In this document: positions 19,232 through 33,021 of the stretch, piece by piece
How positions within the stretch are numbered: position 1 is the first letter of the stretch
Layout of the letters: each line of letters begins with the position of its first letter
From: Anisus vortex
Taxonomy: Eukaryota > Mollusca > Gastropoda > Planorbidae
Reading direction: 5' to 3'
Length of the DNA: 64,000 nucleotides
Assembly: GCA_949126835.1 (NCBI GenBank)
Contig: OX421506.1
Span: forward strand, 28,285,441-28,349,440
Translations under genes and position numbers: made by a program
Notes under the pieces: model-generated
What the model was told of the DNA's origin: nothing
The model's database searches: none
The model's input: the letters and a program-made list of their open reading frames with translations, nothing else

Positions 19232-19237
19232 TGTAAA
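19232..19237. other. Target-site duplication TGTAAA (left)
   Basis: Matches 33016-33021. A 6-bp duplication is the hallmark of Maverick/Polinton integration. Confidence 0.9.
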
Positions 19238-19894
19238 AGTAGTATAGTAGGGTCTTTTCGGTTAGCATTTGAGGCGCGCGCCTATGCGCCTCAGTTGACC
19301 TTTGACCTTTGACCCGGAAGTGCCCTTTGACTCCGTCACCGGAAGTGACCCCAACCGGAAGTGACGTCATCCAAGATGGCGTCTTGTCGTGTTGTTACAC
19401 GACCGACCGTGACCTAGTGACCTAGTGACCCCGTCACAGGAAGTGACCCCTACTGGAAGTGACGTCATCCAAGATGGCGTCTCGTCGTGTTGTTACACGT
19501 TCGGCCGTGACCTAGTGCCCTTTTGACCTAGTGACCTTTTGACCGCGCGGTTATTTTGTGGTATTACACGTGCTTTGAGCACGTGCTTTAATTAAAGATG
19601 GCGGAACCAAGATGGCGTCTTGTCGTGTTGTTAACACGTGTTATTAAATTATTATTTTGTGTGATTTTATCACATGTTTTAATTATTACATGTGATTAAT
19701 TATAGTGTGTAGTGTTATTACACGTGGTTTTATCACACGTGGTTTAATTATTACACGTGATTTGTTCACGTGCTTTCATTATAGTATTACACGTGGTTTT
19801 ATCACGTGGTTTAAGTATTACACTAATTAAAGATATCGACAACAGTACGACATATAGAAAAATACAAAAATGGGTTTAAATTATATGTGTGTTT
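19238..19894 (+). repeat. Left terminal inverted repeat of the Polinton (657 bp)
   Basis: Reverse complement of 32359-33015. I saw no mismatch in the stretches compared, and the lengths are equal. It contains a tandem duplication with a 98-bp offset (AAGATGGCG boxes at 19371 and 19469, a third at 19607). Dense candidate transcription-factor sites are present: TGACCTTTGACCTTTGACC (19296-19314, nuclear-receptor DR1 type), CCGGAAGTG ETS sites, TGACGTCA CRE sites (19362 and 19460 area), CAAGATGGCG YY1-type sites and many CACGTG E-boxes (19565-19820). Confidence 0.9.
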
Positions 19895-20578
19895 ATTCAT
19901 AGTTTTACACCGTAATGATCCTTTTTCAACAATACATAATCAAATAAATGTTCCAGATGTTTATTTTACAACAATACATAATCAAATACATATACACAAT
20001 AGCAATACATATATACAGTATAATGTATGTACATCAGAAGACAATTTTTATTTTACAACTATGAAACCAGTCCAATGTCTGTCAATGTCGGCCCCTAAGT
20101 GTAGTCTGTGTGTATGCCCTAGACACTCCAAAACTAATTAAATGTCTAGTGGTATGGTTGTAAATGCGTCTGCTTGTACTTGTCTTTTGATATAGAAATA
20201 TGAAAGTGAACTGCGGTGTTGTGTGTATGTAAAGACTGCGTTTTGATGTGTTTTGAATCCTATATTTGTACCACCCCCCGCTTTTTGTGTGTTGAGTACA
20301 TGCATGAAGTGTGTGATGTCTAATGGGTTGTGATGTTTCCTTTTCTCTTTCCCGCGCGCCATCCTCTACTTTCTCATTCTCTGTGACTCCTTTTCTTGCT
20401 CCGTCTATACTTATTTCTCTCTCCGTCTCTTTTTCGAACAAACATTAAGTCACTCCAACCGTAATCATTAAACGTTCCCTCTTTCTATTGTGTTCAATCT
20501 CTACCTAACTAACTTCTTCTCTCTTTCTAAATTTGTCTTCCCTTCTATGTCCTTATAACGAGCAAAGCATTTAGTGCC
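19895..20578. promoter_or_regulatory. Leader/promoter region between left TIR and first gene
   Basis: No supported ORF; the minus-sense open stretch at 20082-20441 is low-complexity. A CT-rich tract (20440-20560) precedes the ATG at 20579, whose context is 'tgccATGG'. The promoter probably lies in the TIR. Confidence 0.35.
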
Positions 20579-21053
20579 ATGGATCCTATGGGTAAACATC
20601 CCTTTACCGCTCGCGTTGCTGACCAAGGCGCTATCGACAGTGGAATTGTCTTAGAATGTAGCAGCACAGACTGTGATTTGTCTTCAATCATTGAGAAAAT
20701 CAAAGGAGACATCACTTGTGTTGTATTATTGACAGAAGATGAAATGCAGGTAAGATACTACTTGTCTTATCTTATATATTACAAACACGCATTCTATATA
20801 GAATATTAGTGCGCCCTACTCTCATTCGTTTAAAATATATATCTTTACTTTCGATGTGTAGAAACTTGCGGATGCGGATACTGAAGGGTTAGTTCAGAGC
20901 CTTGGGAGGTCTACGAATGTCATCAAATCTCTGCAGGAAACTTGTCAGCGCCTAATTGATGAGCAAGCAGACGTGAAAGAAGCCCTGGCGATTGTTCGTT
21001 TTTACAACTTGGAAAATGCAAAGTGTTATTGCATGGCAAATGTTAACAAGTAG
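20579..21053 (+). CDS. Two-exon Polinton gene of unknown function (120 aa)
   Basis: Exon 1 is 20579-20749 (57 codons). The intron 20750-20861 is 112 bp, GTAAGA..TGTAG, phase 0. Exon 2 is 20862-21053 (63 codons plus TAG). The start has a strong context and the AATAAA signals follow at about 21090. The protein is small, acidic in its first half and helical in its second, with several cysteines. Its first fifteen residues (MDPMGKHPFTARVA) resemble the N-terminus of the element's own ATPase (MDPRWKHPFTALIA), but the P-loop is absent. I do not recognise the family. The intron contains a stretch similar to a host LINE 3' tail. Confidence 0.6.
20750..20861 (+). other. Intron with LINE-tail-like sequence
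   Basis: The stretch 20768-20832 ('cttatcttatatattaca...ctactctcattcg') aligns with the LINE 3' end at 46791-46860 ('cttatcttatacattaca...ctacgctcatccg'). Confidence 0.5.
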
Positions 21054-21079
21054 ACATTGCTAGCTTTAGAGTCTCAAAC

Positions 21080-21105
21080 TATAAAAAGAAAATAAAAATA
21101 AAGGA
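21080..21105 (+). terminator. Polyadenylation signal region
   Basis: 'aaaataaaaataaagg', about 35-45 bp after the stop codon of the two-exon gene. Confidence 0.5.
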
Positions 21106-21159
21106 AGAAAAAATATTGGTGTTTGTTGTTTGTGTATGAAGGTTTTGCGAATAACGTTC

Positions 21160-21665
21160 TTGAGAGATAATTAACTAATTAACTCATTATACTTGTAAAG
21201 GGACGATTTTAATTACTAAGGGCCGTAATTATCACTAAATAATCCCCAATTATTTATTTTTACACATTTTTACTTACTTCGATACAGTAATTATCTTAAT
21301 TTTATTCTTAACTTATTAACTAATTATAATTTTTATAGACATAATTATTTCGTAAAGGAGCGATTTTAATGCCCAAATGTCGTAATTAACACATTTTAAT
21401 CAATCATTCTCTAATAAGGGGTACGTTTATTTACTGGGATACATTAATTTTTTCTTACGTTTATACTTTATTAATTAAATAATTATTTTTATAGCCATAA
21501 TTAGCATGTAAAGGGCCGTTTTAACTTACTAAGAGGAGTAAATTTCTTTAATTCATGCTTAAATTATATAATTTTTTTTTAAATTCTTTAATAAGACACC
21601 CTTTTTACTTGCATACTTTATACTTACATAGTCTACATTTGTCTCTTTAAAATTTTCTTTCAATG
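21160..21665. repeat. Diverged approximately 157-bp tandem repeat, three copies
   Basis: Recurring anchor 'cataattat...tgtaaaggg.cgattttaattactaag' at about 21191, 21351 and 21507. The copies share an AT-rich filler with 'ttacttacttcgatacagtaatta'-like text. No ORF. Function unknown; a replication or packaging role is only a possibility. Confidence 0.6.
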
Positions 21666-22394
21666 TTAATTGATAATACATGTAAATAGATTTTACTTAA
21701 CTAGTTAAACATTTTCACTTTTAAACATACTTATTTCAAATTTGAATTGATAATCATTGTTTTAAAAGCCTAAACACTAAACATTTTTTTTAGAACTCCA
21801 AGGCAAAATATAAAGTCCAGATGTTGTGCGCGTTCACAAAGTACATTATTTTAGTGTATGCGTAGTTTGAACGTGTATTCAAATCAGATAGTTCTTTTAA
21901 AATACTATACCACAATAGTTTATATTTTTTATTTATAACTGTCGAATAAGTGTCTCTTTAACTATTAAAAGTCAGTTTGTTATACTTAAAGGATTGTATC
22001 TTTTCATTTTTGTCGTGTAATTTTTTACTTACTAGGGTTGAACATTTTAAAATTTAAGGGTGTGTTGTAAGATATTTCTCCCTTTATTGTATTAAGTGAG
22101 GAATTTGGAGTATGACAATGATAAAAACAATAAAAATAATCATATAAGTAAGTTTGTATTTTTTGTTAACTTTATGGTTGTAGACAAAATGATGGAGGGG
22201 GTGTATTGAAGTTGTTGACTCCACTGTTCCACATGCGGGTCAACCAGAAAACAAGATAGGGTCCAATACACGTGGTATACAAGGGCAGTAACCGTGTAAT
22301 AATTTTTTAAACAGTAAACAAAGAACGTTTTAATTTTTACATTTTTTTATTTGCACTCAAGTACATCAAACAGGGAATAAAATATCAACATGAC
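21666..22394. other. AT-rich non-coding part of the Polinton
   Basis: No ORF over about 70 codons and no polymerase motifs seen in any frame. Confidence 0.5.
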
Positions 22395-22411
22395 CGGTAG
22401 TTTATTTATTT
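22395..22411 (-). terminator. Polyadenylation signal of the Bcl-2 homologue
   Basis: Minus-sense 'aaaataaataaac' follows the stop codon within about 10 bp. Confidence 0.5.
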
Positions 22412-23129
22412 TTATAATATTCGATTCTCAGTGTTCAGGATTTGTAGAGCGAAAAGTGCACAAAGTGTCAAGATTCCATTGCCTACAGCAACACAGCCTA
22501 GGATTGTCTTAATTGAGGGCCAAGAGCTGCAATTTTTATTCTCACCTCTACCAGACTTGAATTCCAAAAACCCTTCCTGTGTGAAGGAAAAGAAAGATGG
22601 AAGCTAGTTTAATATACGCTTTTATATTTAACTGTCTATAGGATGATTTTTGTTTAAATATTGTCTTTGTTACTCTTGTAAACCTATTACTTACCCAGTT
22701 ATTATGACGATTGAGCCAGCTCGAGAGATGTACATCAATATATGTTGTTAACCATTCTAGAAGATTATCTACTAAATGGTATTTCTTTAGTTGAAAACAC
22801 CGAGCTGCAAATTGACCGGAAAATCCAAACAACCCCACAATTCGCCCCCAATTTATATCATCACAAAATATTTCTCTAACGATCGATGCGAAAGTGTCAT
22901 AAGCATTGTCATCAGTTATGACTAGACCATCTATTAGGTTATCAAATCTATTCTTAAATCGTTCTTCAAATTCATCTCCTAGTATTCTCATAGCATTTTG
23001 AACAGAATTCGGAGTGTTGATAATACTTTCATGTCGACCATCGTTTTCCCAAGTATACCCATTGCATTGTAAACGATATTTTATGTAATTCACCGCAATG
23101 CTACGAGTATTTTCATGTCCTATAGACAT
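22412..23129 (-). CDS. Bcl-2 family apoptosis regulator carried by the Polinton (two exons, 199 aa)
   Basis: Exon 1 spans 23129-22695 (145 codons). The intron 22694-22577 is 118 bp (GTAAGT..CACAG), phase 0. Exon 2 spans 22576-22412 (54 codons plus TAA). Visible domains: BH4-like segment at residues 10-27; BH3 at 46-57 (AMRILGDEFEER); BH1 at 91-110 (core NWGRIVGLFGFSG); BH2 at 137-148, split by the intron right after the Trp; and a hydrophobic tail at about 168-190, suggesting a mitochondrial/ER membrane anchor. Host Bcl-2 genes carry an intron at this same BH2 position, so capture from host DNA is likely (inference). A multidomain protein with a BH4-like region favours an anti-apoptotic role, but a pro-apoptotic type cannot be excluded. 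ATG 23127-23129 is chosen; the frame is open upstream but has no ATG. Confidence 0.85.
22577..22694 (-). other. Intron inside BH2 of the Bcl-2 homologue
   Basis: The donor GTAAGT follows the TGG codon directly. The acceptor follows a pyrimidine-rich tract and ends CACACAG. Splicing restores the conserved Trp-Glu-Gly-Phe junction. Confidence 0.8.
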
Positions 23130-23284
23130 ATTCTTTTCAAGAGAACTAATAAGAATTACAAAAAGAACCGTTTTACTCAACGAGAAACCACAACACGTTT
23201 ACAAAACTGAATAAGGAAAACTACCTAATTTTATTAAAATTTGCTCAATAATGGAAAAAGACAATCCTCTTTATATACATGAAA

Positions 23285-23475
23285 GAATTGACCTAGAATT
23301 GACCTAACTGCACTAAAACCCATTAGTGAACAATGTTGACCTTAGTGTACTAAAACCCATTAGTGCAAAAATGTCAGTAGCCACGTGGACTAAAAAAAGA
23401 TTTAATTGATAAACAAAACCCATTAGTGCAAAAAGTTGACCTTTAGCCCTGCACTAAGTGCCTTAGTGCAACAGC
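23285..23475. promoter_or_regulatory. Repeated 'ACCCATTAGTGCAAAA' motifs upstream of the Bcl-2 homologue
   Basis: Three direct copies ('aaacccattagtg' at about 23318, 23355 and 23420), each near 'ttgacct', then 'gcactaagtgccttagtgcaac'. An inverted relative ('agtgcaactaatgg') lies at about 23598. Looks like a cluster of protein-binding sites in the Bcl-2 promoter region. Confidence 0.4.
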
Positions 23476-23761
23476 TGGCGAACTAAAAATGTCTGAATTG
23501 TTACATCATCGTGTCGAGCCAGATGCCGTAGCCGAGATTCAGGTTGGTAGATAAGTAAATTTTTGACCAGTGCAACGAGTAAAATGCACTTAGCCAAGTG
23601 CAACTAATGGAAACTGACCATAGGGCCAGTCAAATCCAATTACCTGTACACCGAAACTCTCAGCCTATGCTTAATATACGTAACCAGAAGTAATGTTTAA
23701 ATGGGTTTAGACAGTGTTGGCTTTTAAGATGATACTGATAAATACAGGTGTGGTCAAAATA

Positions 23762-23885
23762 CGCTATATATAGTCCGAGGCAGATTGCTAAATTTCACTT
23801 GTTCTAGTATCGTAAATCAACCCTTGTTCCAGAATTCCAGTCTACAACTAGTTCAATTGCCTGTTGCTATATACAGAAATATGTA
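23762..23885 (+). promoter_or_regulatory. Possible plus-strand promoter and leader exon
   Basis: A TATATATAG box at about 23765 is followed about 30 bp later by a pyrimidine-rich start-like region, and a consensus donor (AT|GTAAGT) lies at about 23883. No ORF follows nearby. Confidence 0.3.
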
Positions 23886-23934
23886 AGTATTTTTGTTTTT
23901 ATATCACATGTTAACTTAATTCGTTATATAGATA

Positions 23935-24150
23935 GCTGTACAGAAAGGTATATAATCAACTAGATATATAAACAGCTAGATAGCTAAAAAGATATATAAA
24001 CAGCTAGATAGCTAGATAGGTGTACAGACAGGTATATAGATAGCTAAAACGCTATATAAACAGCTAGATAGCTAAAAAGATATATAAACAGCTAGATAGA
24101 TATATAAACATCTAAATAGACAGGTATATAGATAGACAGGTTCACTACAT
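23935..24150. repeat. Imperfect 'agctagatagctaaaaagatatataaac' repeat
   Basis: Short-period AT-rich tandem sequence. Confidence 0.8.
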
Positions 24151-24192
24151 TTTTTCTAACATCATTGTACTCAGTATAAAACATTACCACAT

Positions 24193-24229
<37 letters not shown>

Positions 24230-24334
24230 CAGAGAGTGGGAGAGAGGCAGAGAGTGAGAGAGAGAGGCAGAGAGTGAGAGAGAGAGAGAGGCAGAGAGTG
24301 AGAGAGAGAGGCAGAGAGTGAGAGAGAGAGAGAG

Positions 24335-24384
<50 letters not shown>
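24193..24384. repeat. (GA)n microsatellite with 'ggcagagagtg' interruptions
   Basis: Open frames through it are artefacts. It lies inside the Polinton, where such tracts are unexpected. Confidence 0.95.
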
Positions 24385-24385
<1 letters not shown>

Positions 24386-24423
24386 ATGAACGAGGGTTGA
24401 CCATCGTCCGTGGATTTAGCCAA

Positions 24424-24877
24424 TGTGTGTGTGTGTGTGTGTTTTTTTTTCCCAGCCCAGTATACCATAGATTCAATGAAGCGCGCAGCGGGAACTCCAC
24501 CCAACCCTCCCCGCTCACTAATTTTTTCCCCTGACTGTGTGTGTGTGTGTGTGTGCAATTAGCAAGCCGTGTCTGTGGTAAACCAAAGATCCCCCCACCC
24601 TCCCCGCTCTTTACAAGAGCCCTGTATTTTTTCCCCTGCCCAGCACACACACAAAGGCAAACAATCCTGTTCATCGCGCGTATGTCTGATCGTGTTTGTG
24701 TGTGTGTATGTGTAGAGCTGGTTGTGTGTTTGGTTCCAGAATGCTAGGTTGCAGCTTGCACTACGTATGCTAGTACATACATTAGTTTTCAATAAAAACA
24801 ATAATTATTATTAATTTTTAATATTTTTAATATTATTAATTACAGAAGCGGAGAGGGAGAGTGCCCGCACGTATGGC

Positions 24878-24935
<58 letters not shown>
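24424..24935. repeat. (TG)n tracts with a duplicated GC-rich block
   Basis: TG tracts lie at 24424-24443, 24535-24555, 24695-24712 and 24880-24930. A block of about 130 bp containing 'ccaccctccccgctc' and 'ttttttcccctg' occurs twice (24450-24540 and 24580-24650). Confidence 0.85.
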
Positions 24936-24939
24936 TGCT

Positions 24940-25180
24940 AGACTGACATAGCGAGTTTATTCTTACTGTACACCCTTGAAGATTTAACATGCTTACAATA
25001 TATATATATTACTATTATTACCGTATTTATTTCAGATATTGTCACCACTAACAAAATAACAGAATCAATTTTGTGTGTAAGTTCTTTTATTTACGCTTTT
25101 GAAAATATAATAATACTTATAATACACAATGTTTACATTTAAACTATTTCACGAATAATACACATTTTATAATACTCTTT
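24940..25180. other. AT-rich non-coding part of the Polinton
   Basis: No ORF or motif recognised. Confidence 0.4.
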
Positions 25181-25400
25181 TAAATAGAAATTGATGTTTA
25201 CATTTAAATAGTGCATATACAGAATTATATAATGTTTAAGTGAATATAATACATACAATAATATACATTTAAATAATATACATTTAAATAGAAATTGCTG
25301 GTTACATTTAAATAATACATATACAGAATTATATAATGTTTACGTGAATATAATACATACAATAATATACATTTAATAATATACATTTAAAAAAAACATA
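25181..25400. repeat. About 117-bp AT-rich tandem repeat, two copies
   Basis: The sequence 'aatagaaattg.tg.ttacatttaaata...acagaattatataatgttta.gtgaatataatacatacaataatatacattta' occurs twice (from about 25184 and 25285). It lies just beyond the 3' end of the minus-strand gene block. Confidence 0.85.
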
Positions 25401-25434
25401 TACATACAACATTAAACTAAAAAATATGTTAGCA

Positions 25435-25698
25435 CTAAGTTCTGTGTGATTGTTCTAGTTTTTCAAATGCTTGAAGAATATCATCTTTTAGCAAAATTAA
25501 ATTTAAAAACCCTTCTTTTGTTAACACCAGGGCGCTCGGTGAAGGCATTAAATTATCTCTTTTCCCGTGATAAGATCGCAAATGTAGCCTTGGTTTATTC
25601 ATGAATAATGAGACACAAGCCATTTTCGAGTCTGTCTGGTTTTTGTCTCCCTTGACTACCCCAGCCGGTCTCGTTGCAAAAACCCATGAATCAGCCAT
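25435..25698 (-). CDS. PC4/Sub1-like ssDNA-binding protein (87 aa)
   Basis: Residues 27-81 follow the pattern of the C-terminal domain of transcriptional coactivator PC4: a short beta strand (ACVSLFM), a second strand with basic/aromatic residues (RLHLRSYHG), a 'LMPSPSALVLT' turn equal to the 'lPgkkGIsLt' position, then a helix (LLKDDILQAFEKLEQ). PC4-type domains dimerise and bind single-stranded DNA. In a protein-coated linear DNA element it could serve as SSB or late-transcription factor (inference). Its ATG overlaps the end of the protease gene by 8 bp (ATGGCTGA), so it belongs to the late block and is its last gene. The family call rests on pattern reading only. Confidence 0.6.
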   Translation of the reverse strand: MADSWVFATRPAGVVKGDKNQTDSKMACVSLFMNKPRLHLRSYHGKRDNLMPSPSALVLTKEGFLNLILLKDDILQAFEKLEQSHRT

Positions 25699-26194
25699 CT
25701 TGAAATAAAACGTCTAAATCAGATCGTTTAGTTAATCTTTTCACAATTCTTAAAATTATAATGTCGTTAAGATATTGTCTTTGTGTTGAATTTGAAAATG
25801 GGTATAGCACTCTTTGTAGACTGAACCCACGGGCCTTTGCTAGTATGAAATAAACAGCGTACAATCCACACGTTTTAGAAACAATTGTCTGTAAATGCCG
25901 GGTATTATATAGCAGTGGTCTTGTTGAATTGTTTTTAATAAACTCTACAATCTCAGAAGACCGTGGTCCAAACCCAAAACTATCGAAGTACGTAAATTGT
26001 CCATGTCCGTTGTAAAACAGAGAAACCCAGTGCGACCCAATTTCGACTTGTTTGTCTAGGTTTATGATAAATCCCGAGGCTTTGTCAGCAGCGAGGCAGG
26101 CTGGAAGTTGATCACATGCTAAGACGAGGGTGAGTGAGAGTCGGCGTGCAAAGGTATCAGAATCAAGTATGGCTTGTAGGTGGTGTGTGTTCAT
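25691..26194 (-). CDS. PRO: Adenain-like cysteine protease, capsid maturation (167 aa)
   Basis: Polinton/adenovirus-type ULP-fold protease expected to process virion proteins. The catalytic triad is readable: His55 (GSHWVSLF), Asp71 (TYFDSFG) and Cys109 (SKTCGLYAVYF), with oxyanion Gln102. Length is normal for the family (about 160-210 aa). The gene sits 30 bp after the major capsid gene and overlaps the PC4-like gene by 8 bp. Frame and active site are intact, so it should be active if expressed. Confidence 0.92.
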   Translation of the reverse strand: MNTHHLQAILDSDTFARRLSLTLVLACDQLPACLAADKASGFIINLDKQVEIGSHWVSLFYNGHGQFTYFDSFGFGPRSSEIVEFIKNNSTRPLLYNTRHLQTIVSKTCGLYAVYFILAKARGFSLQRVLYPFSNSTQRQYLNDIIILRIVKRLTKRSDLDVLFQDG

Positions 26195-26224
26195 TCTGAA
26201 GGGTTGGCGGGTTAATAACAGTGT

Positions 26225-27529
26225 TTAGGCTGTATAGTCTGTTAATATTTGCCTCGTTTTAGAGATTTCAAGTATAGAATCTTGTTCGGCATATATGATG
26301 AGTTGAATCGGTTCCTTTGTAACTGTTGCAAACTTTAATTCAATGGATATAGGGCCACTTTTAACCATCTCAAGTTGATTCCCATCTAATAGACTGGGAG
26401 TTAAGTCGAATGCCATGAGGCTATTACCTTTCCGGAAGTCATTTATTGATATTGAGTTTCCCGCATCTCTTCCTATATAGCCCAGGGCTAAATTGGTTTC
26501 GAAAAAGGCGCGCACAACTTGATTTTTGTCGAATGACATCACCAATGGTTTGGAAAAAGATTTACCATCCACTGTTACGTTCAAATAAGATAAATCAAAA
26601 TGTTCGAAATTAAAGGGGTTTAAGCCATAAGCGCCATTGAACGCTGAAGCCTTAACTAGTCCAATAACTATCCGGGTGGGTGTCTGACTAAGAAACAGAT
26701 TATCTTGATGATGCGATAACATTCCTTTTGGAATACAACAGGTCTTTATCACAACTCGTTTAAATGGATATTTGGCATTCATTCTTTGTAATGCTTTTTC
26801 ATGCGCTAATGAAATGGCTGGGTTTAATTTTGCTTTTCTGACCAGTAATTTGGCATACGTGATTACCGATTTGTAACCAAGTTCAGGTTTGGAAGTCAAA
26901 AGGTTAAATGTGTCTTTTGATGGGGACAGTTTTATTTTTACATCGACTCCATTTAAAAGGTAACGGTCTTGAACACAAATATCTGTATGCAGACGACCCA
27001 TTAAGTCAATTTCAGTACTGTTTGCGACAATTTCCTTACGGGTTTTGAAACCACTATTAGTATCGTTGAAATCGTTGAAAAAAGAGGGTGAATCTTTGTA
27101 GTACAGCGCTGCCGTTAGAGGTCCTTGTTTGGCATCTAGTCCGTGATTTAACGTTGCTTCGATATAAGCACGGTAGGGATACGTATTTTCAGATGGTGAA
27201 ATAAGTGTGTCATTGAGCGCTATGTCAACTTGACTAAATAAACCGTGTAAGAAATAATTTACAGGACCTACGTTAGCGTCGTCAGGTAAATTAGTGCCGT
27301 CTGGTAACGTTACTTTGACACGGATATGAATAAAGGTGTTGAACAAATCTAAATAATCCTCACTGTTTCCAGAGATTGAAAATTCTATAGGGGCCCCTCC
27401 TGCCAGTGAGGCTAGAGGATGTATCTCAACAAACTGACCATCTTCCACAGCTGTTTGTGTTGGTGGTACGCTAAACAAATCCAAACCAGAATGTAAACAT
27501 TCACAAGAACTGGGGTGTAGCAAAGACAT
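26225..27529 (-). CDS. MCP: Major capsid protein, double jelly-roll (434 aa)
   Basis: Matches the Polinton major capsid family: N-terminal 'LDLFSVPPTQT' and 'PIEFSISGNSEDYLDL' signature, then 'GPVNYFLHGLFSQVDIALN' near residue 90, and 'YPYRAYIEATLNHG'. Beta-rich throughout, with two jelly-roll repeats expected from the family. It would form trimeric capsomers of an icosahedral capsid. Full length, no stop or frameshift. Four bases separate it from the upstream core-protein gene. Confidence 0.93.
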   Translation of the reverse strand: MSLLHPSSCECLHSGLDLFSVPPTQTAVEDGQFVEIHPLASLAGGAPIEFSISGNSEDYLDLFNTFIHIRVKVTLPDGTNLPDDANVGPVNYFLHGLFSQVDIALNDTLISPSENTYPYRAYIEATLNHGLDAKQGPLTAALYYKDSPSFFNDFNDTNSGFKTRKEIVANSTEIDLMGRLHTDICVQDRYLLNGVDVKIKLSPSKDTFNLLTSKPELGYKSVITYAKLLVRKAKLNPAISLAHEKALQRMNAKYPFKRVVIKTCCIPKGMLSHHQDNLFLSQTPTRIVIGLVKASAFNGAYGLNPFNFEHFDLSYLNVTVDGKSFSKPLVMSFDKNQVVRAFFETNLALGYIGRDAGNSISINDFRKGNSLMAFDLTPSLLDGNQLEMVKSGPISIELKFATVTKEPIQLIIYAEQDSILEISKTRQILTDYTA

Positions 27530-27532
27530 TGT

Positions 27533-28009
27533 TTAGTCAAAAATATCAAAATGTTTACGGTGTTGATTGTTCTTGCGCTGGGTCTTCTTATGAGACGTGC
27601 CTGGTCTGTGAGCTGTTTTTATCTGTTTACTGCGAGGTTGGCCCGGCGGTGCACCGCGTCGTCTCTTTCTAAAACCACTTCCGGACTGACTAATATGATT
27701 GACTGCGCCTTGTAGTAAACGCTTACCCGCTTCTTTCGAGTGTTCTCTAAATGACTCTCCCACGTTTCTACCAGATAATGCGTCGTTCGCGACTTGCAAG
27801 CCCGTGTTTACACCCTCTTTAAGTAGGGCTTTGCCACCTGTCTTTAACCATGGAAGCACCATTCGTCCTAGTCCACTAAAAAAAGAGCCAATCCCATGTC
27901 CTCCCTGATTCCGACCTCCAATAAAAACAGGAAGTCCGTGTCCGCCTTGATTACAATAAAAATCTTCGTATAATTTGGGATTGCGCTGTAATACTGTATG
28001 TCTCACCAT
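27533..28009 (-). CDS. pVI/core-like minor virion protein (158 aa)
   Basis: Two NQGGHG repeats (residues about 20 and 34) lead into an amphipathic/hydrophobic segment (IGSFFSGLGRMVLPWL) and an Ala/Lys helix, followed by a very basic C-terminus (RKRRRG, KKTQRKNNQHRKH). In Polintons and adenoviruses a protein of this type in this gene position is a minor capsid/core or membrane-active component. The Gly-Gly sites near the N-terminus could be protease cleavage sites (inference). Two bases separate it from the penton-like gene and four from MCP. Confidence 0.7.
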   Translation of the reverse strand: MVRHTVLQRNPKLYEDFYCNQGGHGLPVFIGGRNQGGHGIGSFFSGLGRMVLPWLKTGGKALLKEGVNTGLQVANDALSGRNVGESFREHSKEAGKRLLQGAVNHISQSGSGFRKRRRGAPPGQPRSKQIKTAHRPGTSHKKTQRKNNQHRKHFDIFD

Positions 28010-28011
28010 GA

Positions 28012-28781
28012 TTATTCTAGGTCAAAGTGTTTCCGTGTTCTAAAATGGAGTGTCAACACCGACGTCCCACTCGTAAATGGAATAGGTTGTCCTAGCGCAT
28101 CCGTTAAAAGTATTTCCACTGTATCGAAGGAAAAACGACTCAGGGGTATGTAGTGTGGTTTGTCGTAAATCCGAAAAACAGAAAGCGGTCTTTTATCGAT
28201 GATAGGTACAGTTCGTAGTAATGGGACTAACACATCTCCCACCACTCTCGAGGCGACTAAATCACAATAGACGAATACCGTCTTTATATTGGTATCGATC
28301 TCTTGATCACCAATATTACTGGTTAGTTTTTGTGCTCCGTTAAAATATCCAAGAAAATTAGTCAATTTATCACTAAGGATAATTACATCACCTGGTTCGT
28401 TTACTTTTATAACAACTTTCTTTAAGGGCTTGTCACAGTCAGTCGTAATAATTCTGACTTTTCCATCCCGTATTTCTTCTTTTAATGTTAGTTTTTCCAA
28501 TGTTTCGATAATTTTGTCTACAGAATGAAATTTCCCAGGTGGAATGGTAAGGATTAAACGTGATTTCGGTTCTTCGCCGTCCTTGTTTGAGTCATACTGT
28601 ACCCACAATTCATTTTCTTCGATAAGACAATAACGGTTCGGAAATTGTATCTCGACCAAACCAACTTCATAATTCGCTGTGATATCAATCGTCTGTGGTA
28701 GTTTGACAAAAAAGTGATCTGCCTTGTTATTTGGAAAAGTTTTGGGGAAGAGTTGCTTGGTAGTGTTATATAAAAACTCAT
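28012..28781 (-). pseudogene. Penton-like minor capsid protein, one frameshift
   Basis: A 215-codon open frame (28659-28012) carries the body and C-terminal jelly-roll signature of the Polinton minor capsid family, including 'FRIYDKPHYIPLSRFSFDTVEILLTD' in two halves and 'LTLHFR' near the end. Family N-terminal residues (MSFYITLPSNSS) are encoded in another frame from ATG 28781. The two frames meet near 28733-28734, where one base appears to be missing from a short G run (plus sense). The start ATG overlaps the stop of the membrane-protein gene as ATGA, which supports 28781 as the true start. It is either a recent inactivating deletion or a sequencing error; the rest is uninterrupted. Confidence 0.8.
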
Positions 28782-29077
28782 TGTGAATCTTTTATTCTTG
28801 AAAGCTTGGGGTTAGGTAGTATGTATCCTAGGCAGCTGGATAATAAGACGACCCACAATTTTTCCTCCTGTTCGTTTCCGACACCACGTGAGAGATTGAA
28901 CAACGCCACGAAGATGACTGTGTATATAACGATCATTTGTGAAATGAATACGGCACCTGGTCTTACTTTTATTTTACCCAACCAGGTCACGAGGGTGGAT
29001 GCGAATGAGGATCCGGACGTAGAGGAGACGGGTCTGTCAGATTCAATTGTTGCATCGCGATATATGGTTGGTTCCAT
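28778..29077 (-). CDS. Small two-helix membrane protein of Polintons (99 aa)
   Basis: A hydrophilic N-terminus (residues 1-40) is followed by a strong transmembrane segment at about 42-63 and a second hydrophobic stretch at about 74-88 (LWVVLLSSCLGYILP) ending PNPKL. Proteins with this layout recur beside the penton-like gene in Polintons; function is unknown. It overlaps the penton-like start by 4 bp (ATGA) and follows the integrase stop by 2 bp. Confidence 0.7.
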   Translation of the reverse strand: MEPTIYRDATIESDRPVSSTSGSSFASTLVTWLGKIKVRPGAVFISQMIVIYTVIFVALFNLSRGVGNEQEEKLWVVLLSSCLGYILPNPKLSRIKDSQ

Positions 29078-29079
29078 CG

Positions 29080-30135
29080 CTAGTCTTTATATTTCGAAAT
29101 GTTTTTGTCTGAGATCCAGCTATCGAATGACGAGTTGTAACCAAACCACTTGACTAAATACTCTTTTCCACCGCCGGCGCGTTGTCGTTCTTGTAATATG
29201 TTTTCGATCCTGTATATTTGTTTGTCTCCTACTTTTTGTAGTTCTTCTCTATAAAAAGAACCTTTTAGTTCTTCACCGGCATCATCTTTCAAAATGTAAA
29301 CTATTGGCTTTGTTGTTGCCTTGAGCCGACTGATTGTAAACAGCTCCTCTGTCCACGCAGGTGTGTAACCCTTTTTAAAATTTTGTCGGGCTTGTGCGAT
29401 TCTGACACGGTCACCTTCTTCAAACCCTTTTCGCCGTGGGGTATTAACAGGGGCGTATAAGGTATTCCACACTTGTTCTTGATTTTCTAAAGTAACATTC
29501 ACGGGCGCCATTTTAATGCTTCTGTGGAATGAGCTATTATAATTTTGAAGCAATTGATCTAGTACATCAATGTAACGAAGACTATTTGTTTTCGTAAAGT
29601 AGCGCCACATTTTTTCTTTTAAGGTGCGATTGAGTCGTTCTACGATAGCGGCCTTAATATCTTCGTTCTCCGTGGTGAAGAAATGCACACCCTCATCTTT
29701 GAGAAATTTTTGATAAGTCTTGTTGGTAAACTCGCTCCCTTTATCGGTTTGAATCTGAAGTGGCTTCCGCTTTTCAAAAATTTGTCGTGTTGCCTCTACT
29801 AGTGCTTTAGCTGTTTTTGTCTTTATCGGAATGGCCCAAGCGAATTTACTAAATACATCCACACATGTCAGTATGTACGAAATCCCATTATTATATTTTC
29901 GTAGCCCTTGCATATCTATGAGATCAGCTTGAAATTGTTGGTTCATACCACCTGTTATAGTTGTTCGTCTTTGAAAACGCCGACGAATCGGTTTGTGTAA
30001 TGTATACGTGTCCTGGTGACTTAACCATTCTTTAATTTCCTTTGTTTTAAATTTTTGATGTTTAAAAACACCACCGAAAGCGCCAGGACGAGCCGGCTCA
30101 AAATAATATCTGCGTAAGTTTACCACTCCTCCCAT
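29080..30135 (-). CDS. INT: Retroviral-type (rve) integrase with C-terminal chromodomain (351 aa)
   Basis: DDE catalytic residues are visible: Asp71 (FQADLIDM), Asp131 (IQTDKGSEF) and Glu166 (AAIVERLNRTLKEK). An SH3-like region follows at about 235-295. Residues about 305-348 form a chromodomain (YRIENILQER, YLVKWFGY, SFDSWI). It inserts the element with a 6-bp duplication, as seen here. The chromodomain may direct insertion toward marked chromatin. The frame is intact. The start overlaps the preceding gene by 16 bp. Confidence 0.93.
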   Translation of the reverse strand: MGGVVNLRRYYFEPARPGAFGGVFKHQKFKTKEIKEWLSHQDTYTLHKPIRRRFQRRTTITGGMNQQFQADLIDMQGLRKYNNGISYILTCVDVFSKFAWAIPIKTKTAKALVEATRQIFEKRKPLQIQTDKGSEFTNKTYQKFLKDEGVHFFTTENEDIKAAIVERLNRTLKEKMWRYFTKTNSLRYIDVLDQLLQNYNSSFHRSIKMAPVNVTLENQEQVWNTLYAPVNTPRRKGFEEGDRVRIAQARQNFKKGYTPAWTEELFTISRLKATTKPIVYILKDDAGEELKGSFYREELQKVGDKQIYRIENILQERQRAGGGKEYLVKWFGYNSSFDSWISDKNISKYKD

Positions 30136-30611
30136 TGACCTTGTTTTGTACTTTTAGCTTTCCTAGTTCGCTTAGGTTGAGGTGGGGTTATTTTGTCTTT
30201 CTCTGCGTTTTTCTGTTTCTTACTTTTCTTTGTTGATTCGGGAATCACGATTGGTGTTTCTTCTTTTTTAGGTTCAACGTCTACTTTTTTAGGTTCAACG
30301 TCTACTTTTTGTTGTTGTTGGTCCGACGCTGTTGGTGTATTTGACTGTAGCGGTGCTGGCGGTTGAGGTTTCATATCGAATAATCCTAGTGGTTTTTGTT
30401 TGTACTCGCCAAGACGAAATGTATAGCGTTGTAGAATTTGTTGGTACTGTTTGACTTTGTCGCGCGGTGATAAATCTTCCCGCTCTAAGATCTGTTGCAT
30501 TTGGTTATCCAAGTCTCTTAAATTATCGTTAAGTGTATCTGGTGGTACATATGTTTTTTGATTCATAGATTCCAATAGTCGTGGGTCAATCAAAACCATT
30601 TTCTTGGCCAT
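30120..30611 (-). CDS. Conserved Polinton protein, helical plus Lys-rich tail (163 aa)
   Basis: The N-terminal half (MVLIDPRLLES, LRDLDNQMQQIL, KVKQYQQILQRY) is strongly helical and probably coiled-coil. The C-terminal half is low-complexity and basic, with a duplicated 7-residue word KVDVEPK (a 21-bp DNA duplication at 30267-30308). Similar proteins lie next to integrase in other Polintons; function unknown. It ends 16 bp inside the integrase gene and begins 3 bp after the basic-protein gene. Confidence 0.65.
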   Translation of the reverse strand: MAKKMVLIDPRLLESMNQKTYVPPDTLNDNLRDLDNQMQQILEREDLSPRDKVKQYQQILQRYTFRLGEYKQKPLGLFDMKPQPPAPLQSNTPTASDQQQQKVDVEPKKVDVEPKKEETPIVIPESTKKSKKQKNAEKDKITPPQPKRTRKAKSTKQGQWEEW

Positions 30612-30614
30612 CTT

Positions 30615-30938
30615 TTAGAAACCTAGAACACCTTTAAGAACACTTAGAACCGGTCCGAGTAACGCACCTATGAAACCACCGCGTTGAAGTATTTGCTTCC
30701 GCTTTTTTACGGATAGTTTCTTTTTGGTAAGTTCTCTTAGACTTGTTTTGTGTCGACGTAAACGAAGCTTCTGATGTTTTGTAAGTGGAACGTTCCCTTT
30801 TAATACATTGTGACAACACTCGCACAGTGTGTGTATGAGTTGTGGTGTGGCATTTTTCAAAATGGCCTTTATGGCAGGTGGCTTAGCCCGACACAAACAC
30901 CTTAATAGTTCTCCCTGTTGTTTCGTCTTTTCAGACAT
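30615..30938 (-). CDS. Small basic Polinton protein with glycine/hydrophobic tail (107 aa)
   Basis: It has a Cys-rich helical N-terminal part (LLRCLCRAK, LIHTLCECCHNVLKGNVPLT), a Lys/Arg-rich middle (KLRLRRHKTSL, KKKLSVKKRK) and a tail QRGGFIGALLGPVLSVL. Its composition suggests a DNA-binding core protein with a membrane-active tail. The Gly-Gly before the tail is a candidate protease site (inference). The gene sits directly against the ATPase stop. Confidence 0.65.
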   Translation of the reverse strand: MSEKTKQQGELLRCLCRAKPPAIKAILKNATPQLIHTLCECCHNVLKGNVPLTKHQKLRLRRHKTSLRELTKKKLSVKKRKQILQRGGFIGALLGPVLSVLKGVLGF

Positions 30939-31559
30939 TTATTTAGGTACGTAGACAACTTGTTTCTCGTAAGGAAATATATTACTCCGTAAGCGCAAGT
31001 GATCCGGTGTGTCTTGTCGAAGGTCGAGCAGTAAATAACCATGAGGGGTCGCTGTTGCATCTTTAAAACTTTCTTGTACATAAGAAACACGCCCAGGGTA
31101 CATTTGTTTTGCCAAATTTGTAATCTGTGCTCCGTCGCGAGGATTTTTAAAGAGCACTATGTAATGTGAATTTAAACTGATGGTTCTTTGTTCTTTGTTT
31201 TTTCCAAACAAGTTTTGTACAATGTATAAAACACTGATATCTCGGTGATGACTCCCTTTAGTAAACAATTTAGTAATCCGATCATCGGTTTCGGCCATCA
31301 AATCATCTATGACAACCAGACGACGTTTCTTATCTCCGACCCCCCATTGTTCCATTTCAGGAAGGCCTTCCACAAAATGAACACCTTTCATGGTCTCGTA
31401 TATCGGTTGCCATTCGCCATAACACCAAATGATCTCTTCTGGTACAGCGTCCACCATATCAGATAGATGTGCCAGTAATTTGTTTACAAATACTGTTTTA
31501 CCGCTACCGGTTGGGCCGGCTATAAGCGCTGTGAAGGGATGTTTCCACCTTGGATCCAT
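30939..31559 (-). CDS. ATP: DNA-packaging ATPase, FtsK/HerA (A32) type (206 aa)
   Basis: Walker A GPTGSGKT is at residues 15-22 and Walker B LVVIDD at 81-86. A downstream arginine-containing 'RDISVLYIVQNLF' and 'NSHYIVLFKNPRD' region is typical of the viral packaging ATPases. It would drive genome translocation into capsids. Length is normal for Polintons. The start ATG has context 'cacaATGG'. It is the first gene of the leftward block. Confidence 0.92.
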   Translation of the reverse strand: MDPRWKHPFTALIAGPTGSGKTVFVNKLLAHLSDMVDAVPEEIIWCYGEWQPIYETMKGVHFVEGLPEMEQWGVGDKKRRLVVIDDLMAETDDRITKLFTKGSHHRDISVLYIVQNLFGKNKEQRTISLNSHYIVLFKNPRDGAQITNLAKQMYPGRVSYVQESFKDATATPHGYLLLDLRQDTPDHLRLRSNIFPYEKQVVYVPK

Positions 31560-31639
31560 TGTGAGAACTGATATGTTTTAAGCAGTGTGATTCTATTTTT
31601 TATATTTTGCTAATACATTTTTCAATCTCTCATAGAACC
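31560..31639. promoter_or_regulatory. Divergent promoter between ATPase and the plus-strand end gene
   Basis: Only 80 bp separate two divergent start codons. AT-rich 'ttttttatattttgc' at 31595-31610 reads TATA-like on both strands. 'ttttcaatctctcatag' just before the plus-strand ATG also looks like a splice acceptor. Confidence 0.45.
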
Positions 31640-32359
31640 ATGGCCAATCAACAAATACCGGTAATTGAAAGGATCTGGCGCCTCCTACAGGACCCTACCA
31701 ACGGTTGTTCCGGGTGTCTGGAGGACCAGGCCAACCAGCTCGGGCACTCATGCCTCATGTTCGAGACGTTCGAGGAGCGGCTGCCAGAGCACTTATTTAA
31801 TATAATACAATTCGGCCTCACCCAAGAGGAACTCGTAGGCTTCACATATGTTGAAGCCTATAGGCAAATTGAAGCCTTACTGGCCCGAAGGCGACGCCTG
31901 GTTGTAGCCGTTGCCTATCCCCCACTCGGCTTGGACATCCCACCCCCCAGTCCCAATCCATATGCCCCTTTACCCCCAAGTCCATCCCTATTTTCTTCCC
32001 CGGCCCAATCGGTCCCGTCACCATCATGGCAATGGGACCAACTCCCTTACAGCCCCCAACCTTCACCCACCCCCACTACGCCACCGACTTCCCCACCTAT
32101 TTATATCCACCAGTCCCCGCCCATTATTTATGTGCCCCAACCCCCACCCATTTATGTGCCCTATAACCACCAACATATCCACTATGTGGATCCCCCAGCC
32201 TCCCCAGACCCAACTCCCTATATAGACCTAACGCAAGACAACATAGCTCCCTCAGCCTCCCCACCCTCCCCAGCCCAACACTTCTTGGATAACCCTGAGG
32301 TCTTATCTGAGAATGATATGGGCAGCAATTTGGGAAGTGATTTTGAAGAATGCAAATAA
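31640..32359 (+). CDS. Cys/His motif plus proline-rich PPxY protein at the right end (239 aa)
   Basis: ATG 31640 has the best context (aaccATGG); an in-frame ATG at 31607 is possible. Residues about 18-35 hold a Cys-x2-Cys-x9-His-x-Cys pattern (NGCSGCLEDQANQLGHSC), suggesting zinc binding. A helical part rich in Arg (ALLARRRR) follows. From about residue 100 the protein is proline/tyrosine-rich, with two PPIY motifs and related PPIIY, fitting WW-domain (NEDD4-type) binding. The tail is acidic. Function unknown. The TAA stop ends on the first base of the right TIR and overlaps an AATAAA signal (32355-32360). Confidence 0.65.
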   Translation: MANQQIPVIERIWRLLQDPTNGCSGCLEDQANQLGHSCLMFETFEERLPEHLFNIIQFGLTQEELVGFTYVEAYRQIEALLARRRRLVVAVAYPPLGLDIPPPSPNPYAPLPPSPSLFSSPAQSVPSPSWQWDQLPYSPQPSPTPTTPPTSPPIYIHQSPPIIYVPQPPPIYVPYNHQHIHYVDPPASPDPTPYIDLTQDNIAPSASPPSPAQHFLDNPEVLSENDMGSNLGSDFEECK

Positions 32360-33015
32360 AACACACATATAATTTAAACCCATTTTTGTATTTTTCTATA
32401 TGTCGTACTGTTGTCGATATCTTTAATTAGTGTAATACTTAAACCACGTGATAAAACCACGTGTAATACTATAATGAAAGCACGTGAACAAATCACGTGT
32501 AATAATTAAACCACGTGTGATAAAACCACGTGTAATAACACTACACACTATAATTAATCACATGTAATAATTAAAACATGTGATAAAATCACACAAAATA
32601 ATAATTTAATAACACGTGTTAACAACACGACAAGACGCCATCTTGGTTCCGCCATCTTTAATTAAAGCACGTGCTCAAAGCACGTGTAATACCACAAAAT
32701 AACCGCGCGGTCAAAAGGTCACTAGGTCAAAAGGGCACTAGGTCACGGCCGAACGTGTAACAACACGACGAGACGCCATCTTGGATGACGTCACTTCCAG
32801 TAGGGGTCACTTCCTGTGACGGGGTCACTAGGTCACTAGGTCACGGTCGGTCGTGTAACAACACGACAAGACGCCATCTTGGATGACGTCACTTCCGGTT
32901 GGGGTCACTTCCGGTGACGGAGTCAAAGGGCACTTCCGGGTCAAAGGTCAAAGGTCAACTGAGGCGCATAGGCGCGCGCCTCAAATGCTAACCGAAAAGA
33001 CCCTACTATACTACT
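32359..33015 (-). repeat. Right terminal inverted repeat of the Polinton (657 bp)
   Basis: Reverse complement of 19238-19894, with the same internal 98-bp duplication and motif content. The outer end reads ..CTATACTACT. Confidence 0.9.
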
Positions 33016-33021
33016 TGTAAA
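33016..33021. other. Target-site duplication TGTAAA (right)
   Basis: Identical to 19232-19237. Confidence 0.9.

What the first reader, a model, noticed from the sequence alone, without database searches (positions are those of the whole stretch)
22412..23129. Bcl-2 homologue captured with its host intron
BH4-like, BH3, BH1 and BH2 segments plus a tail anchor are readable in order. The single intron interrupts BH2 immediately after the conserved Trp, the place where animal Bcl-2 genes are split. This indicates capture from genomic DNA rather than from mRNA. A virus-like transposon carrying an apoptosis regulator suggests a live viral phase in which host cell death matters.
Basis: partly seen in the sequence, partly recalled or inferred. 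Interest (0 to 1): 0.9.

Follow-up and report, generated by a model that had tools for sequence, protein, structure and literature searches.

The report
Snail transposon carrying stolen apoptosis genes
A virus-like transposon in a snail-like genome carries a copy of the host's own cell-death-blocking Bcl-2 gene, intron included, beside a second gene that resembles part of another cell-death regulator, and copies of this pair also sit in mirror-image mobile elements elsewhere in the genome.

Summary
The Bcl-2 gene is real and correctly placed (minus strand: exon 1 22695-23129, 118-bp intron, exon 2 22412-22576; Pfam Bcl-2 E 2.6e-25). It sits inside a 13.8-kb Polinton (TIRs 658/661 identical, 6-bp TSD). 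The probable host gene (L001/L028) has its intron after the same Trp codon; donor and last 30 intron bases match (93%, E 4e-8). Six sampled element copies plus one database relative form a clade sister to it. Capture of unspliced host sequence is well supported.

Beyond the finding: (1) the same arm holds a second two-exon gene resembling the middle of DFF45/ICAD. (2) All four sister Polintons examined hold both genes. (3) The genome has at least 150 Bcl-2 loci, 112 of them in 56 outward-facing pairs; 10 of 10 pairs examined end in Polinton termini with perfect 6-bp TSDs. Four were read internally: Bcl-2 in both arms of all four, the ICAD-like gene in both arms of three, no capsid or integrase gene found.

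Bcl-2 shows purifying selection in the deeper comparisons only; ICAD-like does not. No PolB was recognised and a penton-like gene is split between frames. A live viral phase, expression and function are untested.

The parts
19232..19237 (.). target-site duplication TGTAAA, left copy
   Evidence: identical to 33016-33021
19238..19898 (+). left terminal inverted repeat, begins AGTAGTATAG
   Evidence: 658 of 661 bases match the other end
20579..20749 (+). ICAD-like gene, exon A (57 codons); first codons resemble the Polinton ATPase start
   Evidence: (DFFA profile 118-148, E 0.12); no Pfam match alone
20750..20861 (+). ICAD-like gene, 112-bp GT-AG intron, phase 0
20862..21053 (+). ICAD-like gene, exon B (63 codons and stop)
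   Evidence: Pfam DFF-C E 0.0014, 19 bits, cut-off 25; DFFA profile 149-195, E 7.6e-4
22412..22576 (-). Bcl-2 gene, exon 2 with tail anchor and stop
   Evidence: matches exon 2 of the probable host gene
22577..22694 (-). Bcl-2 gene, 118-bp GT-AG intron after the BH2 Trp
22695..23129 (-). Bcl-2 gene, exon 1 (145 codons, BH4-like, BH3, BH1, BH2)
23270..23277 (-). TATA-like box upstream of Bcl-2
   Evidence: consensus match only
25691..26194 (-). adenain-type protease ORF
   Evidence: Pfam Peptidase_C5 E 3.2e-5
26225..27529 (-). 434-aa ORF of the F54H12.2-like family, read here as major capsid protein (label recalled)
   Evidence: 1482 relatives; no Pfam match
27533..28009 (-). glycine-rich small ORF in the capsid block (pVI-like label recalled)
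   Evidence: no Pfam match
28012..28811 (-). penton-like gene (label recalled): start-like segment and body lie in different frames
   Evidence: body frame 28012-28791 has no Met; not mended
29080..30135 (-). retrovirus-type integrase with chromodomain
   Evidence: Pfam rve E 2.2e-15, Chromo E 2.3e-9
30939..31559 (-). packaging-type ATPase
   Evidence: Pfam Pox_A32 E 3.8e-5
32355..33015 (-). right terminal inverted repeat
33016..33021 (.). target-site duplication TGTAAA, right copy

Best explanation
A Polinton of a heterobranch-snail-like host took up the host's single-intron Bcl-2 gene as unspliced sequence. The intron shrank from the present host's 7,507 bp to 118 bp, and the gene became inherited cargo next to an ICAD-like gene. 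The likely role is to keep cells in which the element is active alive: the Bcl-2 product, anchored in the mitochondrial membrane, binds BH3 domains and blocks the start of apoptosis, and the ICAD-like product may restrain the apoptotic nuclease that would cut the element's DNA. Shown: capture, intron, linkage, copy number, mobility signatures. Inferred: all activities. The same cassette was also amplified in outward-facing pairs inside elements with Polinton ends; those read internally lack recognisable capsid and integrase genes, so they are probably moved in trans by Polinton proteins.
For: Bcl-2 identity. Element bounds and TSD. Host intron. Clade of six sampled element copies plus P0003 (100/98) sister to the probable host gene (97/93). 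Four of four sister Polintons (C7, C13, C14, C18) have Bcl-2, both ICAD-like exons, both TIRs and a capsid-ORF piece and a 6/6 TSD. BH3-groove motifs kept (NWGR, GDEFE). Selection on Bcl-2 exon 1: dN/dS 0.26, 0.30 and 0.23 for the three element pairs tested, p 0.007, 0.0009 and 3e-5 against neutrality. Ten of ten outward pairs examined have Polinton termini and 6/6 TSDs.
Against: Among all 15 element pairs dN/dS runs 0.23-1.62; close pairs are 0.41-1.62 with few changes. Among near-identical Polinton copies 2-4 of the codon changes are nonsynonymous and 0-2 synonymous, and against P0003 exons differ as much as the translated intron (9/145, 5/54, 2/33). The ICAD-like exons fit neutrality (p 0.33 and 0.44) and never reach Pfam's cut-off. 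No PolB was recognised in the ORFs scanned. No expression data. Pre-mRNA capture is not excluded.
Confidence: 0.78

Rival explanations
1. The Bcl-2 gene is inert hitch-hiking host DNA carried by a transposon and amplified without function.
For: Neutral-looking change among close copies; ICAD-like exons look neutral; 12 of the 150 listed Bcl-2 hits contain a stop.
Against: 138 of 150 hits have no stop inside the matched stretch; excess of synonymous change in the three deeper element pairs tested; groove motifs kept; the two apoptosis genes sit together in all 11 element loci whose neighbourhood was read.
Confidence: 0.15
2. The outward-facing pairs are encapsidated satellite or defective genomes of the Polinton, made by snap-back of a replicating arm and packaged by helper copies.
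For: L033 repeats the window element's own left arm as two arms 99.95% identical over 4,195 bp with TIRs 100% identical to the window TIR. Nine of the ten pairs examined are 13.1-15.1 kb long, close to the 13.8-kb Polinton (coordinates). No capsid, protease or integrase gene found in the four read internally.
Against: L033 is 9.5 kb and has 200 N in its centre; the other pairs have a different gene order from the window element; size similarity may be coincidence; packaging is untested. The outward spacing over all 56 pairs varies from 2.3 to 12.7 kb.
Confidence: 0.3
3. The gene is an ordinary host Bcl-2 paralogue that merely lies near Polinton debris.
For: Element copies are close relatives of the host gene.
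Against: It lies between TIRs with a perfect TSD in 5 of 5 Polinton copies on five contigs, with conserved flanks.
Confidence: 0.01
4. The pairs are assembly artefacts (false inverted joins).
For: L033 has 200 N and C1:72.4 has 5,000 N in the centre (one search lists them).
Against: Different unique flanks with matching TSDs at ten of ten; arms not perfectly identical (97.8-100%); no N in the fetched pieces of C1:80.05, C9:9.35 and C17:8.35.
Confidence: 0.03

Closest known systems
HVT vNr-13 (herpesvirus of turkeys)
   Same: Viral Bcl-2 homologue with two exons, one intron, BH4-BH3-BH1-BH2 and TM, organisation conserved with the host gene (PMC7199394, passages).
   Different: Alphaherpesvirus of birds; no ICAD-like partner mentioned in the passages seen; not a multi-copy transposon.
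Adintoviruses with anti-apoptotic genes
   Same: Polinton relatives; PMC11071296 (passages) says most mammal-associated species appear to encode anti-apoptotic homologues. That Starrett 2021 lists Bcl-2-like genes is recalled; the paper is not held.
   Different: No 'Bcl' in that text; 'intron' and 'splic' appear once each there, in passages on other matters. Here the PolB gene was not recognised.
Vertebrate Mavericks
   Same: TIRs, 6-bp TSDs, capsid and integrase genes.
   Different: No introns were observed in genes of intact vertebrate elements (PMC8097293, passages); here two genes have introns.
Burro giant retrotransposons of planarians
   Same: Transposons with a BCL2-like motif noted (PMC6431247, passages).
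   Different: Gypsy-type LTR elements with a large polyprotein.
DFF45/ICAD
   Same: Two exons align in order to DFFA profile 118-148 and 149-195; similarity lies between the two caspase-3 sites 117 and 224 (PMC2375272, passages).
   Different: No CIDE-N domain and no C-terminal chaperone part; about 120 codons instead of 331.

Membership tests
Bcl-2 family | Bcl-2 core profile (BH3-BH1-BH2) | tested here: met
   89.3 bits, cut-off 31.4, profile 1-100
Bcl-2 family | helical Bcl-2 fold | tested here: met
   exon 1 only: model and PDB matches
Bcl-2 family, pro-survival type | BH4 | tested here: inconclusive
   14.8 bits, cut-off 20.5
Bcl-2 family, pro-survival type | two coding exons split after the BH2 Trp | tested here: met
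   rule in PMC8998228 passages
Bcl-2 family, pro-survival type | binds BH3 ligands and blocks apoptosis | not testable with these tools
   needs binding and cell assays
Polinton/Maverick | TIRs and 6-bp TSD | tested here: met
   5 of 5 Polinton copies
Polinton/Maverick | integrase, protease, packaging ATPase, capsid protein | tested here: met
   Pfam for the first three; capsid by family and recalled label
Polinton/Maverick | protein-primed DNA polymerase B | tested here: not met
   no PolB match among the ORFs scanned (not every one of the 56 listed ORFs); the genome-wide PolB search did not complete
DFF45/ICAD | DFF-C profile | tested here: inconclusive
   best single exon 24.8 bits, cut-off 25 (L025); window exon B 19 bits; exons contiguous in the profile
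DFF45/ICAD | CIDE-N domain | tested here: not met
   no Pfam match in exon A or B
snap-back defective viral genome | palindromic duplication of a terminal arm | tested here: met
   L033 only, and with 200 N in its centre
snap-back defective viral genome | packaged with helper functions | not testable with these tools
   needs particle sequencing

The most novel reading that the evidence does not exclude
The genome hosts a helper-satellite system: capsid-coding Polintons propagate a large population of palindromic satellite genomes whose only recognisable genes are two apoptosis inhibitors, Bcl-2 and an ICAD-like protein lacking the flanking caspase sites, so that a shared anti-death cassette is replicated and perhaps packaged and delivered between cells.
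Probability: 0.25. Interest if true: 0.95.

Novelty: new variant of a known kind. Interest (0 to 1): 0.86.

Why it matters
Animal Polintons have capsid genes but their particles remain elusive. A stably inherited host-derived Bcl-2 gene showing constraint across element families is indirect evidence that surviving host cell death matters to them. The shared intron with its shrunken core gives a rare, testable record of how a virus-like element took up a host gene. The pairing with an ICAD-like gene would be a second, downstream attack on the same pathway; none of the papers listed was seen to report it. The paired elements show how a cassette can be multiplied to at least 56 outward pairs in one genome.

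Tried and rejected
Viral-contig scans with the Bcl-2 exon, its alignment, the capsid ORF and its alignment found no relative; a tblastn of the Bcl-2 exon in phage records found none. PDB search with ICAD-like exon B gave nothing. PHROGs added only weak ATPase-type matches. The idea that the window gene is a stray host gene was rejected on the TSD evidence. Host ICAD, copy number of the capsid gene, ICAD-like gene and PolB in the genome could not be obtained. The species is not known; a heterobranch snail is inferred from the relatives.

Full report
1. What was checked. The finding names a Bcl-2 gene at 22412-23129. The two exons translate as stated. Exon 1 gives Pfam Bcl-2 at E 2.6e-25, solved Bcl-xL/Bcl-2 at best E 4.3e-28, and a five-helix model whose PDB matches are Bcl-xL and Bcl-2. 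Matches to predicted viral Bcl-2 proteins are weaker (best E 1.4e-4, an unnamed entry; named ones from 2.2e-3). The BH4 match is below its cut-off. This is far beyond chance.

2. The element. Inverted repeats of 661 bases (658 identical) bound 19238-33015, with TGTAAA on both sides. Inside are, on the minus strand, a C5-type protease, a 434-aa capsid-type ORF, small ORFs, a penton-like gene, an rve+chromodomain integrase and a packaging-type ATPase. No PolB was recognised in the ORFs scanned (not all 56 listed ORFs were scanned). The penton-like gene's start-like segment and body lie in different frames. The right flank has a weak reverse-transcriptase match (E 0.021), so insertion into a retroelement is only a guess.

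3. Host gene and intron. The host genome (863 Mb) holds a Bcl-2 gene, L001, with the highest score, an N-terminal extension like that of freshwater-snail relatives and a 7,507-bp intron after the same Trp. Donor bases GTAAGTAA agree and 28 of the last 30 intron bases agree (E 4e-8). Exon 2 follows in L028. That L001 is the resident gene is inferred from these features and its place in the tree: seven rows (six element loci and P0003) form a clade at 100/98, with L001 as sister at 97/93. The split after the BH2 Trp is a known conserved trait of pro-survival Bcl-2 genes (PMC8998228, passages).

4. Linked copies. Four sister Polintons on C7, C13, C14 and C18 have Bcl-2 exon 1 at 99.3-100% aa identity, ICAD-like exons at 99.4-100%, capsid-ORF pieces at 98.8-99.8% and TIRs at 82-97% to the window's, and 6/6 TSDs.

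5. A second apoptosis gene. Exon B at 20862-21053 gives Pfam DFF-C at E 0.0014 (19 bits, cut-off 25). A profile built from mammalian DFFA proteins (those of 300-345 aa among the 120 listed, a search started from a recalled human sequence) was run on 1,484 ORFs of the window: the two best were exon B (E 7.6e-4, profile 149-195) and the neighbouring ORF of exon A (E 0.12, profile 118-148), which join in the profile exactly at the GT-AG junction. In nine other loci (1,447 ORFs) all 13 matches at E up to 1 were these exons, the best at 3.9e-5; Pfam gives 24.8 bits at best, still below the cut-off. The matched stretch lies between caspase-3 sites 117 and 224 of DFF45 (PMC2375272, passages). In the window and in the C1:80.05, C9:9.35 and C17:8.35 elements exon A begins like the Polinton ATPase (32 of 45 bases in the window; tblastn E about 1e-5 in the other three). 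In C1:72.4 the similarity starts only at residue 17.

6. Paired elements. The genome search scored 150 of 237 candidates, all 150 over the family cut-off, so 150 is a lower bound; 12 contain a stop. 116 hits form 58 opposite-strand pairs within 15 kb: 56 outward, 2 inward; 34 are unpaired. Ten outward pairs were examined: ten of ten have the terminus AGTAGTRTAGT and a 6/6 TSD. Four of the ten were read internally. C1:80.05, C9:9.35 and C15:11.0 (L033) have Bcl-2 and the ICAD-like gene in both arms; C17:8.35 has Bcl-2 in both arms and the ICAD-like gene once. No protease, capsid, integrase or full ATPase was found in them (tblastn). Arms are 99.5-99.98% identical. L033 repeats the window's own left arm twice (4,195 bp, 99.95%) but has 200 N in its centre. 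One inward pair, C1:72.4, has 2.6-kb arms with both genes and 5,000 N in its centre; whether this is an assembly gap or a withheld stretch is not known. Nine of the ten elements measure 13.1-15.1 kb; L033 measures 9.5 kb.

7. Selection. For exon 1 of six element loci, 15 pairs give dN/dS 0.23-1.62: 0.23-0.39 for eight of the nine pairs between the deeper families and for window versus C1:80.05 and C17:8.35; 0.41-1.62 for close pairs and 0.71 for window versus C9:9.35. Against the host gene the six values are 0.28-0.37. Three element pairs and one host pair were tested, p 0.007, 0.0009, 3e-5 and 4e-4. ICAD-like exons: 0.53-0.88 against the window, not different from neutral (p 0.33, 0.44). Near-identical copies show no constraint.

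8. How it may work. Bcl-2 with tail anchor at mitochondria, groove motifs kept, would bind BH3 proteins and stop outer-membrane permeabilisation; the ICAD-like protein might bind the apoptotic nuclease. Both steps are inference from the families. The paired elements would be moved in trans, inferred from shared termini and TSD length.

9. What is known. Viral Bcl-2 with a host-type intron exists (HVT vNr-13). Anti-apoptotic homologues in adintoviruses are mentioned in PMC11071296 (passages). Literature searches. One search (adintovirus with Bcl-2) found no paper; some searches gave listings in which I saw no report of a Polinton with Bcl-2 plus ICAD or of Polinton palindromes of this kind, but most of those papers were not opened, and subscription papers are missing.

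10. Verdict. The larger finding is a two-gene anti-death cassette shared by Polintons and paired derivative elements.

Noticed in passing
window 22577-22694: The intron has no stop in the exon-1 frame (734 of 20,000 Markov simulations do as well); in C1:80.05 and P0003 reading through it leads in frame to the end of exon 2. A retained-intron isoform is possible.
   Followed up: partly
window 25438-25713, minus: 92-aa ORF downstream of the protease, no Pfam match; looks faintly like a PC4-type domain by eye only.
   Followed up: no
window 31640-32359, plus: Proline-rich 239-aa ORF next to the right TIR, opposite strand to the capsid block; no Pfam match.
   Followed up: no
L025/L026 (C1:72.4 Mb): Inward Bcl-2 pair with 2.6-kb arms, an ICAD-like gene lacking the ATPase-like start, and 5,000 N in the centre; perhaps an older family.
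   Followed up: partly
L027 (C7:8.94 Mb) and six further unpaired Bcl-2 hits on C7 between 7.7 and 10.0 Mb: Cluster of unpaired Bcl-2 hits in about 2.3 Mb; only L027 and L008 were looked at.
   Followed up: partly
P0004, P0006 (metagenome contigs of 8,129 and 52,444 bp): Bcl-2 relatives 87% alike that read through the intron site without an insertion; could be intronless or spliced models. Contigs not available.
   Followed up: no
window 23290-23620: Short repeats of the type CCATTAGTGCA upstream of the Bcl-2 gene (seen).
   Followed up: no
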